Below, piece after piece: positions 1,647 through 54,269 of a stretch of DNA of 64,000 bases. The number at the start of each line of letters is the position of its first letter. The first letter of the stretch is position 1. Made by a program: the position numbers and the translations under genes. Below the pieces are notes generated by a model. It had not been told where the DNA came from. It made no database searches and was given only the letters and a program-made list of their open reading frames with translations. The stretch comes from Histomonas meleagridis. Taxonomy: Eukaryota > Parabasalia > Tritrichomonadida > Dientamoebidae. The stretch covers positions 124,001-188,000 of the forward strand of contig WSYJ01000025.1 of assembly GCA_020186115.1 (NCBI GenBank), read 5' to 3'.

Positions 1647-2504
1647 CATGCATAAAATGTATTCATATTTGTTTTAATTTCTTATAGTTTTTTTCATTTG
1701 TTAAACAAAACGTTTCGCAAAACAAATTTTGAACCAACTCAAACAACTTTGATGGAAAATTTTGAGTCGATGTGGTTGAATTCATTCAAAACTGGATTTG
1801 AGTACGCGAACCGCCAATAATCATAGAAATATTTCAGTTAAAACGGAACAGTATTGAGAGTAAATATCCGGAAAATGTTCGTTTCTAATGAAAGTGAAGT
1901 GAACAGGTCAATTTGAATACATATTTGAATTTTTTAAATAACTTTATTCTTGTTTATGTTCATATTATGAAATATTTTATTCAATAATATTATATAATAA
2001 TTCGATTAATATATTATATCAATGATATAATGAATTATTTTTGAAAATAATCCGCATAAAATGATATTCCAAATTTTCATTAAATTGTATTAAAATGAAA
2101 TTTTTCATAGATAATCTATGAAATGAATGCGTTTTTTATAACGAATTTCAATACCCATACCCAGAAAATCATTGTTTTGAGGTTACAAAATGTTTTAAAA
2201 AAGAGATTTTGATCAAGAAGCTTTAATTCCATAGTGCGTTTAAGAAAAACAAACAAATTATGATCCCTTTAAATCAAAAAAATCAATTATCCAAAATTCG
2301 AAAGTTCCAATTATTATTTTTATATTTTCATGAAAATTGTGATATGTATAATTCAATTATTGCAATTGTTAACACAAAACTATATGATTAACAAAATATT
2401 TGTACTTGATAGGAAACTTTTCAATCATTATTCAAATTAAAACATATGCAAACATATTTATACTTATGGCATAATACCCCAATTTTTTCTTATTTCTTTA
2501 TTTT
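1647..2504. other. Intergenic, AT-rich
   Basis: No gene seen. Bases about 2120-2250 are one copy of a direct repeat whose second copy lies at about 4400-4528; both look like fragments of DUF3447 genes. Confidence 0.5.
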
Positions 2505-2938
2505 TTATAAAATATCTTTTTGTTCAAGAAGTAATTTAACTATTTCTGTATAACCATTCCAAGATGCTAAAATAAGTGCTGTGTAAAATAATTTAAATAA
2601 TTTCCAAATATTATTTTGAAATATCAAATTATTATAAAAAATACAAAATAAAACAAATAAATATCTTGAGCATTAATATCAATCCCTTCTTGTTCAAGAA
2701 GTAATTGAATTATATCTGTAACACAACCATAAGATGCCCATATAAGTGCTGATTCAAATGTATCGAATATATTTTATATTTTTATATTAAACCCAATAAT
2801 GTTAAAACAAATATAGTTTTCATTCATATCGATTCCTCTTTTGATACAAAAATCTTTGAGTTTTTTATTGCCATCTAAATTCTTCGTGATTTTAATTTCA
2901 CTGGTATTCGGGATTTCGGCCATACAAAGTGAAGGCAT
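2505..2938 (-). CDS. Small ankyrin gene in three open blocks separated by 48- and 68-nt spacers
   Basis: Reading the minus strand, an ATG at 2938 opens a 45-codon block (2938-2804) that begins MPSLCMAEIPNT and ends GIDMNENYICF, like the cap before the ankyrin array of the lipase gene at 49.2 kb. A 48-nt AT-rich spacer (2803-2756) with in-frame stops follows. Next comes a 34-codon ankyrin block (2755-2654, ESALIWAS ... INAQDIYL), a 68-nt spacer (2653-2586), and a last 27-codon block (2585-2505, YTALILAS ... LLLEQKDIL, stop). If both spacers are removed the frame is exact and encodes 105 residues. A promoter-like ACCGTT lies 33 nt upstream. It could be a live gene with unusual intervening sequences or a pseudogene; the spacers have no GT-AG ends. 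Confidence 0.45.
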
Positions 2939-23415: not shown

Positions 23416-24217
23416 ATGATTTCGCTAAAGCACATGCTTAATGATGATACTGCCATAAACACAGGAGATAAAAATTTGAATAATTTATCATCCTGCTTGA
23501 AATTCCAAATTGAGCTTGAGAAAACTTTCAGCCGTCTGTTAAAAAAATATTGGAATTATTCGATTCAAATTATCCCTACACATTTAATATTATTACAACT
23601 AACATCATTTATAATGCATTTTCATCACCAAAGTGTGTATTCGATATTTACTTAAATTTTTTAAAAACACTTCAAACGAAAGAAGAAGAAATTAAAAATA
23701 TTGCTAAACTAATTTCAATTTTTATCAAACGTATATCTACAATGAACACACAAGAATCATATTATTTAATCGAACAAATGATTGAACAAAATTTAATTGA
23801 TAAAAATATCACTAAAAATATTAAATCGAAATATTTTTCGCATTATAAAGCAAAAGAAGAAAACCAAAATCATTCAGTATTTGGGTCTGATCGAAGTGAT
23901 CCAATAGAAAGATACTTTAGAGATCATTATGAAGAACTTTCAGAGAATGATTGGGAACTTCATAAGAAATATATTAAAGAAGGAGTTAACCCAAATGAAA
24001 TTGCGAAAATAATTCGAAATGACGAAATAGAAAAACTTCAAGAAATATCATCACAAACAAACTTTGATTTTAATCAAACAAATGAACCATCACTTTATGA
24101 AAGATGTTCATTTATTAATCAAAAGAATGTTTCATTAATTGATTATGCAGCATTCTTTAGATCAATTAAATGCTTTAAATATTTACTAATGAATGTATGT
24201 TAATATAAAAACTATTC

Positions 24218-24333
24218 ATTTGAATAATTTTGGATTTGTTTTAATAATTTAGAATATGTTTTAATAATTTGTAATATTTTTTAATAATTTGTAATATGTT
24301 ATAATAATTTGAAATGTGTTTTAATAATTTGAA
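24218..24333 (+). repeat. 20-bp tandem repeat spacer (5 units + 8 nt)
   Basis: After ATTCATTTG come five units of the form AATAATTTxxAATATGTTTT and a terminal AATAATTT, directly before the GAAACAGCACTT that opens the next ankyrin block. Length is 5x20+8 = 108 nt. Confidence 0.7.
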
Positions 24334-24426
24334 ACAGCACTTCATATAGCAGTTAAAAATAATAATATAGAAATAGTAAAATTACTTTTAGATAAAGAAA
24401 GAATTGGTTAATGCAAAAAATATTCA

Positions 24427-24520
24427 TTTGAATAATTTAATATATGTTTTAATAATTTAATATATGTTTTAATAATTTGGAATATGTTTTAATAATTTAA
24501 TATATGTTTTAATAATTTGA
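24427..24520 (+). repeat. 20-bp tandem repeat spacer (4 units + 8 nt)
   Basis: The same unit as at 24218-24333, four times plus AATAATTT (88 nt), again between D/N-I-x-L and x-T-A-L codons of successive ankyrin blocks. Confidence 0.7.
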
Positions 24521-24730
24521 AACAGCACTTCAAATTGCATAACAATTAGGTTACACAGAAATAGTAAATTTACTTCGTGCAAAAAATATAAACGAAAATT
24601 CTCAATCAAAATCTTCTTCCATAAACATCAAATCTTCACTTTCAATAAGAAATGGAAATGAAGCGTATATTGCTAATAATCAAAATCAACTCAAAGACCA
24701 AACGTTCACAGAAAACATTAGAAAGAAAAT

Positions 24731-45353: not shown

Positions 45354-48300
45354 TCATTTTTGTTCAAGAAGTTCTTGAGCTATTTCCTTTGATAACTTCG
45401 AATTTCTTATATACTCAATTGCTGTTCCAAATATTTAAAATAATTTCCAAATGTTATTTTGATATATAAAATTATTAAAATAAATTCTAAATAAAACAAA
45501 TATATATCTTTAGCATTAATATCAATTCCTTCTTGTTCAAGAAGTAATTTAACTATTTCTGTGTAACCATTTAAAGATGCATTAATAAGTGCTGTATCAA
45601 ATATTTAAAATAATTTCCAAATATTATTTTGAAATATAAATATAAAATAAAACAAATAAATATCTTTAGCATTAATATCAATTCCTTTTTGTTCAAGAAG
45701 TAATTTAACTATTTCTATTTTACCATTTTTAGATGCTAATATAAGTGCTGTTACAAATAATTTGAATAATTTCCAAATATTGTTTTGAAATAGAAATTTC
45801 GAATAAAACAAAAAAATATCTTTAGCATTAATATCAATTCCTTCTTGTTCAAGAAGTAATTTAACTATTTCTAAATGATTTTTGTCGCATGCAATCATAA
45901 GTGCTGTATAAAATAATTTAAATAAATTCTAAATATTATTTTGATATATGAAATTATTAAAATAAATATAAAATAAAACAAATAAATATCTTTAGTATTG
46001 ATATCAATTCCTTCTTGTTCAAGAAGTATTTTAACTATTTCTGTATGACCATTGTAAGATGCTTTAATAAGTGCTGTTTCAAATATTTAAAATAATTTCC
46101 AAATATTATTTTGAAATATTAAATTATTAAAATAAATATTAAATAAAACAAATAAATATCGTCAGCATTAACATCAATTCCTTTTTGTTCAAGAAGTAAT
46201 TTGGCTATTTCAGTGTAACCATTTAAAGATGCATACATAATTGCTGTTTGAAATATTTGAAATAATTTTCAAATATTATTTTGGAATATTAAATTATTAA
46301 AATAAAATATAAATAAAACAAATAAATATTTTGAGCATTAATATCAATTCCTTTTTGTGCAAGAAGTAATCTAACTATTTCTGTATATCCATTTTCAGAT
46401 GCCCATAAAAGTGCTGTATAAAATATTTTAAATAATTTTCAAATATTATTTTGAAATATCAAATTATTAAAATAAATTTTAAATAAAACAAATAAATATC
46501 TTGAACATTGATTTTAATTCCTCTCTTTTTCAGGAATAATTTAACAATATCAGTATGACCATTTTTAGATGCATAAATAAGTGCTGTTCTAAATTTTTCA
46601 AATGATTTCGGAATATTATATTAAAATATCAAATTATTAAAATAAATTTTAAATAAAACAAATAAATATCTTGAGCATTGATTTGTATTCCTATTTTGTC
46701 AATGAGTAATTTAACAATTTCTTTATGACCATTTTCAGATGCATAAATAAGAGGTGTTTTAAATCTTATAAATGATTCTCAAATAATATTTTGAGATATA
46801 AAATTATTTAAATAAATACCTAATTGTATAAATAAATATCTTTAGAATTGATTTTATTTTTCTTTATGAAGAGTTTAGCCATATCTATAAAACCATGTTT
46901 AGCTGCCCAAATAAGTGCTGTCTGAAATAATTTACACAATTTCCAAATATTATTATAAAACATTAAAATATTTAAATAAATTTCAAACAAAACAAATAAA
47001 CATTTTCACCAGTTACATCAATTCCTTTTTGTGTAACAAATAATTTAACTAGTTCTGGATAATTTTTACTGAATGCAAAAATAAAAGCTGTTTGATATTA
47101 TTTAAATGATCATTAAGCAATATTTTGGAATATTCTGTTGTTAAAACAAATATTATATAAAGCAAATAAATATTTTTAGCATTAATATGAATTTTTTTAT
47201 TATCAATGAGTAATTTAACAATATCTTCATAACCTTTTTCTGTAGCAAAAATAAGAGCTGTATTAAATATTGTTAATAGTCTCCAAATATTATTTAGTAA
47301 TATTTTGAGATTAAAATAATCTTTGAATAGTAGAAACAAACATCTTTTGAATTGATATCAAATAAATTACGTTCAAGATAAAATTTAACAGTTTCGTATT
47401 GTCCAGAATCACATGCATACATGAATGCTGTTTTAATAATTTTTAATAAACACCTTAAAATTAATAAACAACTAAAATGATTTCCGAAAAACATTGAACT
47501 TTTCATTTAAACATCTGTTGTAGTTATATTTACACCTTTCTTTATTAGGATTTTAATGATTTCTATGTTACCACATGAAGATGCATACATAAAAGGTGTT
47601 ATAAACAAACAAAATAAACTCCAAAACATGACAATATATATCAAAATAAAAAAATAAATTTTATATCAAATAATAAAATATTTTTAGCATTAATATCAAT
47701 TCCTTTTTGTTCTAGAAGTAATTTAACAATTTCAAGATTACCGCATTGAGATGCCTTTATAAGTGCTGTATCAAATATTTCAAGTATTTTCCAAATATTG
47801 ATATTAAACCTTAAATTTTTAAGGCTATTATTGTATGAAATAAAAAAATTTCAGCTTCATTAATATATATTCCTTTTTGTTCTAGAAGTAATTGAACGAT
47901 TTCTATGTGACCTTCTTTTGATGAGAAGATAAGTGCAGTATAAAATAAAGCAAGTCAATACCAAACATTATTTTAAAACATTGAATTATTTAGAGAATTT
48001 CTAAATGTAATAAGTGAATTTCTTTTTCATTTAAATCAATTGATTTTTGTTCAAGAAGTAATTTAACAATTTCTGTATGACCTTCTTTTGATGCTAGCAT
48101 AAGAGCAGTATTAAATAAAGCAAGTCAATACCAAACATTATTTTAAAACATTGAATTATTTAGAGAATTTCTAAATGTAATAAGTGAATTTCTTTTTCAT
48201 TTAAATCAATTGATTTTTGTTCAAGAAGTAATTTAACAATTTCTGTATGACCTTCTTTTGATGCTAGCATAAGAGCAGTATTAAATAAAGCAAGTCAATA

Positions 48301-49134
48301 CCAAACATTATTTTTAAAACATTGAATTATTTAGAGAATTTCGAAATGTAATACGTGAATTTCTTTTTCATTTAAATCAATTGATTTTTGTTCAAGAAGT
48401 AATTTAACAATTTCTGTATGACCTTCTTTTGATGCTAGCATAAGAGCAGTATTAAATAAAGCAAGTCAATACCAAACATTATTTTAAAACATTGAATTAT
48501 TTAGAGAATTTCTAAATGTAATAAGTGAATTTCTTTTTCATTTAAATCAATTGATTTTTGTTCAAGAAGTAATTTAACAATTTCTGTATGACCTTCTTTT
48601 GATGATAAGATAAGTGCAGTATAAAATAAAGCAAGTCAATACCAAACATTATTTTAAAACATTGAATTATTTAGAGAATTTCTAAATGTAATAAGTGAAT
48701 TTCTTTTTCATTTAAATCAATTGATTTTTGTTCAAGAAGTAATTTAACAATTTCTGTGTGGCCTTCTTTTGATGATAAGATAAGTGCAGTATTAAATAAT
48801 TACAATATTTTTTAAATATTTTTTTGTTACTTCAAATCATTGATAAGAATTTCATATAAAAAAATTGAATATCTTTGATATTAATTTTAATTTTTTCTTG
48901 TTGAAGAAGTAATTTAACTATTTCTGTATGTCCATTTTTTGATGCTAACATGAGTGCTGTCCAAAATAACTAAAATTTTATACCAAATTTTAAATTTAAA
49001 CAATATAAAATTTAAATAAACTTCAAAACAAATAAAGATATATCTTTAGAATTAATATGAACTCCTTTTTGTTCAAGAATTAAAGAAACTATTTTTGTCA
49101 CTCCTTTTTTGGAAGCAACTCTAAGTGCTGCATC
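45354..49134 (-). repeat. Array of 23 ankyrin blocks with AT-rich spacers, period mostly about 170 bp
   Basis: Each unit is a 102-nt open ankyrin block plus a spacer. Spacers measured are 68 nt in most of the junctions I counted (for example at 49202-49135, after the 46187, 46016 and 45534 units, and in the 48-kb copies) and 54 nt in the two around 45.7-45.8 kb. The spacer ends in A(T/A)ATATTT just before the x-Thr-Ala-Leu codons, and most carry CAAAATAATATTTGGAAATT. The blocks themselves are diverged like normal ankyrin repeats, and none has a stop. Confidence 0.8.
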
Positions 49135-50567
49135 ATGTGTTTAAAATAATTTCTAAATGTTAATTTGAAATCCAAAATACAAAAAAGAAACTTTTTATAT
49201 GTAAAACAAATATTTTCATTAATATCGATTCCTTCTTTCTTTGCAAATTTTATAAGTTCATCAAGAGGTTCAATATTTTCGTCAATTTCATCTTCTTCAT
49301 CTTCATTTTTATCTTCTTCTTTGTTGCTTTCATCATTAATTAAAGGTTTTCCATCATCTTGTTGAGAATTTTTATAAATGAATTCTAAGTATTCAGGTGG
49401 TTCTTCTTTCTTTTCTGTTAATTTTACAATGTCATCAATATTTTCTAATATATATCTTTCTGTATCACGATTATCACATTCAGTTGGAGCACCATGTAAT
49501 AACCTATGTGAACCGTTCATTTTAACAGCTTTGTTATTTTGAATACGATCTCCCATTGATATATAATTTATTAATGAATGATTATTAACAAATATTTTGT
49601 TAATAGATTTTTTATTCAATTTAATTTTCATATTAGAAGCTTTACCTGATGAAACAACTTTTGACATCAAAATTGATTGTTTTCGTTCTTTACATGTAAC
49701 TATTTGATCTTGAATATAAATTAATCTTCCTGGAATTATGTATTTATTATATGTAAATTTAGATTTTTCTTCATAAAGGCCTGAAATTACATCAGTTAAA
49801 TTTTCAAATGAAATTTTTCCACCACTTTTAATTATAGAAACTGCTGCATTTTTAATTAATATCCAAAAGAAATTTGCTATGTTAACTCCAATTGTATGAC
49901 CTTTAGATGCAACAATATCATCAGTATTACATACTGTAAGTAAAAATTTTTCTTTTTGATTTTCTTCATTAATTCTTTCATCTAATGGACTACAAACACA
50001 TGGTGGTGTACCAAATGTAAATGCTTTAACATTAATATTATCAATAAAACGAAGAAGCGTTGCCGCTAAAGCTGCGATTGCTCCACCTATAGAATGTCCA
50101 ATAAATATCATTTCTTTATAATAGTTGTTCTTATATTTGTCACCATTAATTCCTTTAAAATGTGATATAATTTCTTTGGCTGCATTATAATATCCTTCAT
50201 GCATTTTACATCCTTCAATTACATAATTATCAATACCTTCAACTGGTTGATTCTTCATTGATATCATAGTATCCTTAAGTGTGGAAAGATCTGAACCATC
50301 AATCCAGATAAAAAGAGATATTTCACCTTGTGGATTAATATATTTTAAATATCTAAATTTCGGCGTTAATTTATCAATTGTTATATCATATGTTTTAGAT
50401 ACATTAAATGTATAATAAATCCCTTGATCATGAAACTGAATGATATCTTCTAATTCCCCTAATTCTTTGATTTTTCCATAAAGTTTAATAATTCCAACAG
50501 AAGAAATAGTTTTTGTTATATTAGGTATTTTCATTGGAGATAATTGCTTTTGTTCAGTTATAGACAT
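45354..50567 (-). CDS. Class 3 lipase-ankyrin gene with 23 spacer-separated ankyrin blocks
   Basis: From ATG 50567 a 455-codon block encodes a class 3 (fungal type) lipase: KEMIFIGHSIGGAIAALAAT contains the Ser nucleophile (GHSIGG), and TFGTPPCVCSP and VCNTDDIVASKGHTIG carry the expected Asp and His region. An acidic linker (EEDKNEDEEDEIDEN) leads to the ankyrin cap KKEGIDINENICF ending at 49203. A 68-nt spacer (49202-49135) follows, then 23 ankyrin blocks, most of 34 codons (x-TAL ... EIVKLLLEQ-GIDINAKD-IYL), each preceded by such a spacer. The last (GTAIEYIRNS ... LLEQK) ends in TGA at 45354. Without spacers the protein would be about 1,200 residues. Translated straight, only the lipase plus 34 extra residues results. 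Confidence 0.6.
47941..48800 (-). repeat. Near-identical 170-bp units
   Basis: Five successive copies of GCAAGTCAATACCAAACATT-containing units start at 47950, 48120, 48290, 48461 and 48631 (steps 170, 170, 171, 170). They are almost identical, so they were amplified recently within the older, diverged array. Confidence 0.9.
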
Positions 50568-53170: not shown

Positions 53171-54269
53171 ATGCGCAGCACAGCAAAACCAATTATCCTC
53201 CAGGATCCAATCCAATCTCTTGGGCTTTTTATGATTGCAGATTAGAGTGACGAATCTGGTAATGTTGTTCTTTCTCCATATTCAGCATTTGTTACTCTTT
53301 TAATGGCAGTTTCCATCACTCAAGAGCCAACACGTAAACAAGCTCTTGAAGCACTTAAGATTAGATCCAACTCTACCGTTGAAGAGCTTCTTACATCTCT
53401 TAAAAATCTCATGGGAATTATTGGAAAAGAAGGAAAGGACAGTGTTATTAAATCAGGAAACAATGTCTGGCCAAACAAAGAAGCTCCCATTGATCTTCAA
53501 ATTTATAATCCACTTGTTCAAATTCTTGGTGTTGATTTTACTCCAGTTTCATTTCCACAACCAGGTTGTGACATCATCAATCAAAAGATTGAAGAGCTCA
53601 CTTCAGGTCTTATTCAAAATCTTCTCGATCCTTCAATGCTCCCATCAAAAATCAACTCTGTTCTTACCAATGCCATCTATTTCAACTCCAAATGGAAGAA
53701 GCCATTCATTAAATCGAAAACCAAAAAAGGTGATTTCAAACTTTTTGACAATTCCAAACAATCCACATCGATGATGACGAACACAGACAATTATTTCTAT
53801 ACAGAAGACTCTGCAGCCCAAGTTCTCTCCATGGAATATGTCAATGACTTCTCGATGGTTGTTGTTCTTCCGAAGAAAAAAGATTTGGAGTCTTTCCGAT
53901 CAGTTAAAAAGTTCACTTAACAAAGGCAAATACCAAATATACATTGATATGTTAGGACCGCAAAAGGTTAATGTGCAATTCCCTAAGTTTAAGCACATAT
54001 GGGGCACAAAGTCATTACTCGAAATGCTTCGTAAGTTGGGAATTGTTAATCTCTTCGATGAAAGCGCTGATCCAAACTCAGTTTCGGACATTGTACAAAA
54101 GGCAGTAATCGAAGTTGACGAAGAGAAAACAGTCGCTGCTGCCGCCACCGCCGCAATGACGAGAAGTCTCCCGGCGCAGTTCGTTGCTGATCATCCATTC
54201 CTTTATTTCATCACGCATAAAAACGGAACAATTTTATTTGCTGGCTCTTACATAAAGCCAGAAAATTGA
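53171..54269 (+). pseudogene. Serpin with a premature stop and a frameshift
   Basis: From ATG 53171 the frame reads MRSTAKPIILQDPIQSLGLF, MIAD, then TAG (53243-53245), then SDESGNVVLSPYSAFVTLLM, which is the serpin helix A-B region (NVxxSPxSxxxxLxMxxxGA). The frame continues through TNAIYFNSKWKKPF and SMEYVNDFSMVVVLPKKKDL, shifts near 53895, and resumes KGKYQIYIDMLGPQKVNVQF to the hinge and reactive-loop region VDEEKTVAAAATAAMTRSLP and DHPFLYFITHKNGTILFAGS. The hinge resembles inhibitory serpins, although the usual Gly after EE is Lys. Two lesions suggest a pseudogene; sequencing error at both is less likely. Confidence 0.75.

What the first reader, a model, noticed from the sequence alone, without database searches (positions are those of the whole stretch)
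45354..50567. A lipase-ankyrin gene cut into 24 open blocks by short AT-rich spacers of near-constant length
Seen directly: every one of 23 ankyrin blocks after the lipase is open, most being exactly 34 codons. Each is preceded by an AT-rich spacer that is 68 nt in most junctions I measured (54 nt in two). Spacers carry stops, and 68 is not a multiple of three, so straight translation fails. The blocks differ from one another as functional ankyrin repeats do, including silent and replacement changes in the D-I/V-x-L/F end, yet none has a stop. The array starts with an intact enzyme and ends with a capped repeat and TGA. In about 2.3 kb of 25-30% GC pseudogene many stops would be expected. Spacer ends are not GT-AG. 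Inference: the spacers are removed (unusual introns, RNA-level or DNA-level excision) or bypassed. Alternative: a peculiar pseudogene array kept uniform by duplication.
Basis: partly seen in the sequence, partly recalled or inferred. Interest (0 to 1): 0.88.

Follow-up and report, generated by a model that had tools for sequence, protein, structure and literature searches.

The report
Ankyrin gene split codon by codon
In a parasite of turkeys and chickens, ankyrin genes are interrupted so finely that single codons stand alone between 17-letter AT-rich inserts; the protein makes sense only if the inserts are removed, and no known kind of intron does quite this.

Summary
Between ankyrin blocks the "68-nt spacer" is four 17-nt AT-rich elements, each followed by a codon: KD-[17]-x-[17]-x-[17]-G-[17]-x-TAL. 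The first three codons stand alone; the fourth opens the next block. Together they spell the ankyrin hairpin x-x-G-x. The window array parses into 23 spacers with 90 elements: 85 of 17 nt, 3 of 18, 2 of 23. In 1,037 exact junctions the lone codon is TAT/TGT 365 times, a stop never; in a second family GAA/GGA 671 times, TAA/TGA twice. Some genes mix uninterrupted loops with loops holding 1-3 elements. Elements diverge less than synonymous sites in 11 of 12 bins; loop codons diverge most. One of 556 elements has GT..AG ends; end pairing is near chance and hop-matching codons are rare. Best reading: unconventional ultra-short introns between one-codon exons. Removal is strongly inferred; its level and machinery are not shown, as no transcript could be examined.

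The parts
49212..50567 (-). Class 3 lipase domain and linker, contiguous, up to codon AAT at 49212-49214; the ORF reads on into the first spacer and stops at 49098
   Evidence: PF01764 E 1.8e-16; ORF 49098-50567; boundary by parse
45357..49131 (-). Ankyrin array: blocks starting (TAL codon) at 49131, 48960, 48790, 48620, 48450, 48279, 48109, 47939, 47769, 47599, 47431, 47261, 47091, 46921, 46757, 46587, 46417, 46247, 46077, 45907, 45751, 45595 (30 codons each; 47599 has 29, 46921 has 28) and the last block at 45425
   Evidence: block scan and frame check, no stop in any of 22 blocks
49132..49211 (-). Spacer 1, 80 nt: 4 elements of 17 nt, loop codons K W R D
48961..49041 (-). Spacer 2, 81 nt: elements 17,17,17,18; loop codons E I G W
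48791..48870 (-). Spacer 3, 80 nt: 4x17; loop codons E E K N
48621..48700 (-). Spacer 4, 80 nt: 4x17; loop codons R N G Y
48451..48530 (-). Spacer 5, 80 nt: 4x17; loop codons R N G N
48280..48360 (-). Spacer 6, 81 nt: 17,17,18,17; loop codons R N G N
48110..48189 (-). Spacer 7, 80 nt: 4x17; loop codons R N G N
47940..48019 (-). Spacer 8, 80 nt: 4x17; loop codons R N G Y
47770..47849 (-). Spacer 9, 80 nt: 4x17; loop codons N K G D
47600..47679 (-). Spacer 10, 80 nt: 4x17; loop codons K D G I
47432..47512 (-). Spacer 11, 81 nt: three 17-mers and one 18-mer. The computed parse puts a stop (TAG) in the second slot; by eye another place for the 18-mer gives no stop (N L G K). The only slot in the window array with a possible stop
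47262..47341 (-). Spacer 12, 80 nt: 4x17; loop codons K N G N; first element starts GTTTGT
47092..47171 (-). Spacer 13, 80 nt: 4x17; loop codons N N N Q
46922..47001 (-). Spacer 14, 80 nt: 4x17; loop codons E N G Q
46758..46837 (-). Spacer 15, 80 nt: 4x17; loop codons G Y E K
46588..46667 (-). Spacer 16, 80 nt: 4x17; loop codons K D R R
46418..46497 (-). Spacer 17, 80 nt: 4x17; loop codons K D E Y
46248..46327 (-). Spacer 18, 80 nt: 4x17; loop codons I N E Q
46078..46157 (-). Spacer 19, 80 nt: 4x17; loop codons N N G E
45908..45987 (-). Spacer 20, 80 nt: 4x17; loop codons Y H R Y
45752..45817 (-). Spacer 21, 66 nt: two 17-mers and one 23-mer; three loop codons, S G V in the computed parse (the first is ambiguous)
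45596..45661 (-). Spacer 22, 66 nt: two 17-mers and one 23-mer; loop codons Y G D
45426..45505 (-). Spacer 23, 80 nt: 4x17; loop codons R Y G G
45354..45425 (-). Last ankyrin block (TAIEYIRNSKLSKEIAQELLEQK) and TGA

Best explanation
The gene encodes a lipase joined to about 23 ankyrin repeats, and each hairpin loop between repeats is written one codon at a time: codons alternate with 17-nt AT-rich intervening elements (three codons of a four-codon loop stand alone, the fourth opens the next block). SHOWN from sequence: the 17+3 layout, its recurrence genome-wide, ankyrin meaning of the loop codons, near-absence of stops in them, selection on the blocks, slow divergence of the elements, and loops with 0, 1, 2, 3 or 4 elements across genes, up to three of these states within one gene. 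INFERRED: the elements are removed before or during translation, so that the loop reads D-x-x-G-x-T. Most likely (inferred, not shown) removal acts on RNA, as a class of unconventional ultra-short introns that tend to start R-T-T-T-R-T (GTTT in several elements of the mixed, less amplified genes; ATTT or ATAT in most amplified ones) and end T-T without AG. The elements spread within ankyrin genes by duplication of repeats and of the 20-nt unit (element plus codon); each such duplication adds one codon and one element and so keeps the frame.
For: Stops: 0 of 539 loop codons in held DNA (expected 25.3, 2.8 and 7.1 in the three classes by column shuffle; 80-class minimum 15 in 2,000 shuffles); 1 of 719 slots in tandem 20-nt runs, one run 45 units long. 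Genome-wide: 0 TAA/TGA/TAG in 1,037 exact main-family junctions, where TAT/TGT stands 365 times; in the second family 2 TAA/TGA against 671 GAA/GGA (TAG not tried there). Meaning: the third loop codon is Gly in 55 of 82 distinct 80-nt and 29 of 37 distinct 63-nt spacers, against 26 of 43 uninterrupted loops of the same genome; the 17+3 register scores best of 19 shifts in both classes. Within-gene contrast: L037, L038 and L044 carry gap-12 loops beside loops with gaps 29, 30, 46, 47, 63 or 64. Selection: 58 disjoint unit pairs give pN/pS 0.47 at core and 1.23 at surface positions; 554 substitutions would give about 27 stops if neutral, but 1 of 151 units has one. Elements diverge less than synonymous sites in 11 of 12 distance bins, e.g. 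0.076 against 0.146, loop codons 0.463. GC: elements 7.3%, slots 32.1%, blocks 26.6%. A spliceosome exists: Prp8 domain in a 2,333-aa ORF; a U6 candidate at 43.7 bits, just under the 44-bit cut-off.
Against: No transcript or peptide was seen. Only 1 of 556 elements has GT..AG ends and the T. vaginalis intron motif was not found (0 matches), so ordinary spliceosomal removal is not supported. No excess of 17-nt inserts was found in 323,876 bases outside ankyrin DNA in the held loci (4 candidates at 17 nt, 1 to 5 at each other length from 12 to 26), which is odd for a general splicing system. 20 of 39 63-nt spacers are open in frame 0, so that class could partly be read through. Overall pN/pS is 0.77; one bin of the 60-nt class reaches 1.55; 17 of 392 blocks hold a stop. 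In one of 12 bins (two pairs) elements changed more than synonymous sites, and in the farthest 63-nt bin they are about equal (0.209, 0.214). In the 63-nt class alone the lack of stops is within chance. Low divergence of elements could also come from gene conversion. The window's own array has one slot whose computed parse is a stop.
Confidence: 0.6

Rival explanations
1. Relic: the arrays are a large family of untranslated pseudogenes or donor cassettes; elements were inserted or amplified and the sense of the loop codons is inherited from a working past.
For: 17 of 392 blocks have stops; overall pN/pS 0.77. A decayed copy with a broken block lies in this window at 24190-24540 +.
Against: Stops are all but absent from the slots genome-wide (0 of 1,037; 2 against 671) although TAT to TAA and GAA to TAA are single changes. 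Core positions change less than synonymous sites. 17 of 32 arrays have an upstream in-frame ORF of 60 aa or more as far as the scan saw, with DUF3447 in 9 of the 10 scanned. Loop codons diverge fastest in 12 of 12 bins, so uniformity by gene conversion does not explain them.
Confidence: 0.2
2. The elements are removed at DNA level: a somatic or expressed copy of the genome lacks them, as with internal eliminated sequences of ciliates.
For: Presence or absence at codon boundaries; AT-rich, short, thousands of copies.
Against: No TA boundaries (start dinucleotide TA in 11 of 556). No nuclear dimorphism is known in parabasalids (recalled).
Confidence: 0.06
3. Ribosome bypassing: translation hops over each 17-nt element.
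For: Single codons between elements are no obstacle to a hopping ribosome; no splice consensus is needed (inference, no call).
Against: The codon before the element equals the last triplet of the element in only 10 of 556 cases, whereas known bypassing uses matched take-off and landing codons (recalled). Some 90 hops per protein would be needed here.
Confidence: 0.07
4. Programmed -1 frameshifting: each 17-nt element is translated as six residues with one slip that restores the frame.
For: 17 is one short of 18; only 118 of 556 elements have a stop in frame 0; 20 of 39 63-nt spacers are open throughout.
Against: It would put about 24 residues into every four-element hairpin, so loop codons spelling x-x-G-x would have no meaning. 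18-nt and 23-nt variants do not fit the scheme.
Confidence: 0.04
5. Ordinary introns that each cover a whole spacer.
For: Several elements of mixed genes start GT; one 17-mer in L044, read by eye, ends in AG.
Against: Whole-spacer removal would discard stop-free, Gly-bearing codons and leave a loop lacking x-x-G-x; 1 of 556 elements is GT..AG.
Confidence: 0.03

Closest known systems
Short (type B) spliceosomal introns of Trichomonas vaginalis, 23-25 nt (PMC12316389, section 8 and passages read)
   Same: Parabasalid; T-rich, tiny; 5' half GT[AT][CT]..TT resembles GTTTGTTTT of some elements in L037 and L038.
   Different: Those end in a branch-site/AG motif, and the paper counts 63 introns in 63 genes. 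The RTATGT..CTAACACACAG form was not found here.
15-nt introns of Stentor and 18-nt introns of Bigelowiella (named in a passage of PMC12316389; not read further)
   Same: Length in the same range, so 15-18 nt is physically possible for an intron.
   Different: Those are GT-AG spliceosomal introns in many unrelated genes (recalled); these are not GT-AG, were seen only in ankyrin loops, and are separated by single codons.
Nonconventional introns of euglenids (PMC6221363, abstract read)
   Same: No conserved spliceosomal borders; removal route unknown.
   Different: Euglenid ones form a secondary structure joining both ends; here terminal pairing is near the shuffled level (2.37 against 2.27, sd 0.06).
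Byps, translational bypassing elements in yeast mitochondria (recalled; one search listed no paper that I read)
   Same: Many short inserts within one reading frame.
   Different: Here no matched take-off and landing codon (10 of 556); not a mitochondrial genome.
Internal eliminated sequences of Paramecium (PMC3464196, search listing only)
   Same: Thousands of short AT-rich inserts within coding sequence.
   Different: No TA boundary here; 17 nt rather than 26 and more (recalled).
DARPin libraries, designed ankyrins (recalled)
   Same: The randomised loop positions of D-x-x-G-x-T are the variable loop codons here.
   Different: Natural, and the variable codons are flanked by intervening elements.

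Membership tests
Ankyrin repeat proteins with DUF3447 (trichomonad type) | Ankyrin repeat match and N-terminal DUF3447 | tested here: met
   10 of the 17 upstream ORFs offered were scanned: DUF3447 in 9, an ankyrin family in 10, at E <= 0.01. The window's own array instead has Lipase_3.
U2-type spliceosomal intron | GT..AG ends | tested here: not met
   1 of 556 elements
U2-type spliceosomal intron | Spliceosome present in the organism | tested here: met
   Prp8 domain PF08083 E 5.5e-206 in a 2,333-aa ORF; U6 candidate at 43.7 bits, cut-off 44
U2-type spliceosomal intron | Branch adenosine inside the intron | tested here: inconclusive
   All 286 distinct elements of the main classes hold an A; one element in L038, read by eye, has none; no fixed branch motif was sought by computation
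U2-type spliceosomal intron | Absent from mature mRNA | not testable with these tools
   no transcript data available
T. vaginalis type A/B intron | RTATGT start and CTAACACACAG end | tested here: not met
   0 matches genome-wide with 6-30 nt between the two motifs; looser type B ends were not searched
Euglenid nonconventional intron | Secondary structure bringing intron ends together | tested here: not met
   terminal 5-bp pairing 2.37 against 2.27 shuffled, sd 0.06
Programmed ribosomal bypassing (byps) | Matched take-off and landing codons | tested here: not met
   10 of 556
Ciliate internal eliminated sequence | TA at the boundaries | tested here: not met
   TA start in 11 of 556 elements
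Ciliate internal eliminated sequence | Germline and somatic copies of the genome | not testable with these tools
   one assembly only
Pseudogene array | Stops and frame breaks accumulate neutrally | tested here: not met
   0 of 1,037 and 2 against 671 slots; 1 of 151 units with a stop against about 27 expected

The most novel reading that the evidence does not exclude
A genome writes the variable, target-facing codons of thousands of ankyrin loops as one-codon exons between 17-nt elements that are cut out of RNA by an unconventional machinery. Because neighbouring elements are alike and the codons between them are free to vary, the layout also lets recombination and 20-nt unit duplication shuffle single codons: a natural, codon-by-codon diversity system for binding proteins.
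Probability: 0.3. Interest if true: 0.97.

Novelty: categorically new. Interest (0 to 1): 0.92.

Why it matters
If the elements are removed, exons can be a single codon long, many times in a row (one locus has 45 consecutive 17+3 units), and introns can be 17 nt without GT-AG: both outside what splicing is known to do (recalled). The published annotation reports at most one intron per gene, and the word ankyrin does not occur in its main text (PMC8529796, passages and term counts), so this gene family may have been missed by it. The layout also offers thousands of natural variants in one genome for testing how small an intron can be and which ends it needs.

Tried and rejected
Searched for the same kind of insert outside ankyrin DNA in the held sequence: no excess at 17 nt. 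Searched for the Trichomonas intron motif: none. Searched protein relatives of the lipase ORF: none at E <= 0.001 among 7,994 scored candidates. Rfam at gathering thresholds and the tRNA scan of the window: nothing. Considered one 68-nt intron per spacer: rejected, since it would discard stop-free codons that carry the ankyrin glycine. Considered hop-matched bypassing, end-paired introns and TA-bounded elimination: not met. Considered a strict nested order of element gain: not upheld, since two-element loops in L038 and L044 occupy different positions and L042 seems to have a first-position element alone (read by eye). The 18S search for the organism's name did not complete twice. The name rests on contig C120, 3,384,422 bases, equal to the largest contig of the H. 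meleagridis virulent strain in PMC8529796 Table 1; totals differ (43,276,120 in 121 contigs here, 43,414,808 in 187 there). Looked in print with 10 searches of one open-access library: no description of such elements in the listings and passages seen; most subscription papers are not held.


Full report
What was checked. The finding lies on the minus strand of a 64-kb window of a eukaryote genome held as G000 (window = C21:124001-188000; 43,276,120 bases, 121 contigs). Its contig C120 has 3,384,422 bases, the length of the largest contig of Histomonas meleagridis virulent strain (PMC8529796, Table 1, passages read). The neighbours fit a parabasalid: BspA leucine-rich repeats, Nup93, DnaJ, gamma-tubulin complex. 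The lipase domain is sound (PF01764, E 1.8e-16) and is followed by ankyrin blocks separated by AT-rich spacers.

The unit is 17+3. In the window and in 20 loci first fetched from the same genome, the distance from the KD codon to the TAL codon is mostly 60, 63, 80, 81, 83 or 100. An 80-nt spacer is four times a 17-nt element followed by a triplet; a 63-nt spacer is one codon and three such units; a 60-nt spacer three such units. The first triplets of a spacer stand alone between elements; the last one is joined to the next block. The elements differ by position: most often ATTTATTTGTTTTATTT, ATTTATTTTAATAATTT, ATTTCAAAATAATATTT, AATTATTTAAATTATTT in the main family, and ATATGTTTTAATAATTT repeated in the second family. 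The third of four triplets is mostly GGA or GGT. For the window array a parse against element profiles from the other loci gives 23 spacers and 90 elements: 85 of 17 nt, 3 of 18, 2 of 23; 67 of the 90 slots stand alone, 23 open the next block.

The triplets are codons. Loop codons contain 0 stops in 539: 328 in the 80-nt class (both element families), 148 in the 63-nt class (37 of these being the first codon, still joined to the block before) and 63 in the 60-nt class. Shuffling each column gives 25.3, 2.8 and 7.1; in the 63-nt class alone the lack is not significant, since some shuffles also reach 0. In tandem runs of the second family 1 of 719 slots is a stop, in a short run on the minus strand of L020; the longest run has 45 units. 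Genome-wide, with flanks fixed exactly, 1,037 junctions of the main family hold TAT or TGT 365 times and TAA, TGA or TAG never; these slots all lie between two elements. The second family holds GAA or GGA 671 times and TAA or TGA twice, at C1:800155-800186 and C61:444125-444156; TAG was not tried there. In the window 1 of 90 slots reads TAG in the computed parse, at a spacer where an 18-nt element can by eye be placed another way (47432-47512). The encoded residues match those of 43 uninterrupted loops from 8 sources of the same genome, Gly at the third place being 55 of 82, 29 of 37 and 26 of 43; the chosen register scores best of 19 shifts in both classes tested.

The same loop with and without elements. 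Over 42 sources the gaps include 12 (43 times), 29 (2), 30 (1), 46 (2), 63 (43), 64 (3), 80 (87), 81 (9), 83 (8), near 12+17k, and for the second family 40 (4), 60 (25), 100 (2), with 57, 77 and 97 (35 together) where the scan set the next block one codon early. Off the grid are 54, 65, 66, 69, 71, 74 and 78 (14 together), and some larger values hide an unscored block. Three genes mix states: L037 (12, 29, 9, 12, 12, 63, 29, 12, 64), L038 (46, 12, 12, 12, 12, 30) and L044 (47, 63, 12, 12). In these, read by eye, elements often start GTTTGT or GTTT and are T-rich; 18-nt forms occur. Uninterrupted and interrupted loops therefore stand in one reading frame only if elements are skipped.

Selection. 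In pairs of units disjoint within each distance bin, loop codons change fastest in 12 of 12 bins, and elements change less than synonymous sites of the same unit's block in 11 of 12. 80-nt class, third bin: elements 0.076, synonymous 0.146, nonsynonymous 0.140, loop codons 0.463; 60-nt class, farthest bin: 0.056, 0.391, 0.300, 0.417. Against this, in the nearest 63-nt bin (two pairs) elements exceed synonymous sites (0.010, 0), in the farthest 63-nt bin they are about equal (0.209, 0.214), and pN/pS reaches 1.55 in one 60-nt bin. Over 58 pairs pN/pS is 0.47 at 13 core positions, 1.23 at 6 surface positions, 0.77 in all; 554 substitutions at a mean stop chance of 0.049 predict about 27 stops, and 1 of 151 units has one. 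Of 392 blocks in all 42 sources 17 have a stop, while 369 and 388 have one in the other two frames. Of 32 arrays listed, 17 have an upstream in-frame ORF of 60 aa or more before the first scanned block and 15 do not, in part because the first block was not scored; several last blocks end soon after the second helix. Ten of the 17 ORFs were scanned: DUF3447 in 9, ankyrin families in 10.

What the elements are not. GT..AG ends: 1 of 556. Start AT 356, AA 100, GT 42; end TT 479. The codon before an element equals its last triplet in 10 of 556. Terminal pairing 2.37 against 2.27 shuffled, sd 0.06. Trichomonas motif: 0. No excess of 17-nt inserts in 323,876 bases of held DNA outside ankyrin blocks; this is mostly flanking DNA, not the whole genome.

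Reading. That the elements do not reach the protein follows, by inference, from the codon sense of what lies between them; I put this near 0.75. That removal is from RNA is the simplest route in a eukaryote that has a spliceosome, but the ends are unlike spliceosomal ones, so a variant or different machinery must be assumed; hence 0.6 for the whole statement. The chief rival is a relic family. The most novel open reading is that the layout serves to shuffle and duplicate single variable codons.

Limits. Letters from G000 were limited, so spacer statistics rest on 42 sources (window and 41 loci, one of them the U6 locus) of a genome with 3,887 main-family junctions at up to 3 mismatches. Loci were chosen from Pfam hits and pattern hits and are not a random sample. 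Units related by duplication are not independent; disjoint pairing and distinct sequences reduce but do not remove this. No RNA, peptide or read-level DNA was seen.

Noticed in passing
window 24190-24540 (+): A second, decayed array of the other element family (20-nt units, slots W R V V E E and N N G N E, no stop) with a frame-broken ankyrin block between; a useful contrast to intact arrays.
   Followed up: partly
window 2493-2752 (-): Two more ankyrin blocks with an 80-nt spacer of the main family; the second runs into a stop.
   Followed up: no
window 53303-54269 (+): A serpin gene lies in two overlapping reading frames (PF00079 in both ORFs) without an AT-rich element at the break.
   Followed up: partly
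L014 (-) from 2778: A run of 45 consecutive 17+3 units; the slot codons are mostly Glu, Gly, Val and Ile and hold no stop.
   Followed up: partly
L026 (+) from 2565 and from 3012: Runs of 18 and 23 consecutive units; in the second the slot codons partly repeat E-Y-G, as if the 20-nt unit duplicated in small groups.
   Followed up: no
G000 C1:800155-800186 and C61:444125-444156: The only two exact junctions of the second family with TAA or TGA in the slot; their genes could show whether they are decayed.
   Followed up: no
L044 (+) after the last scanned block: By eye, a 17-mer in the last loop begins GT and ends AG, unlike the other elements.
   Followed up: no
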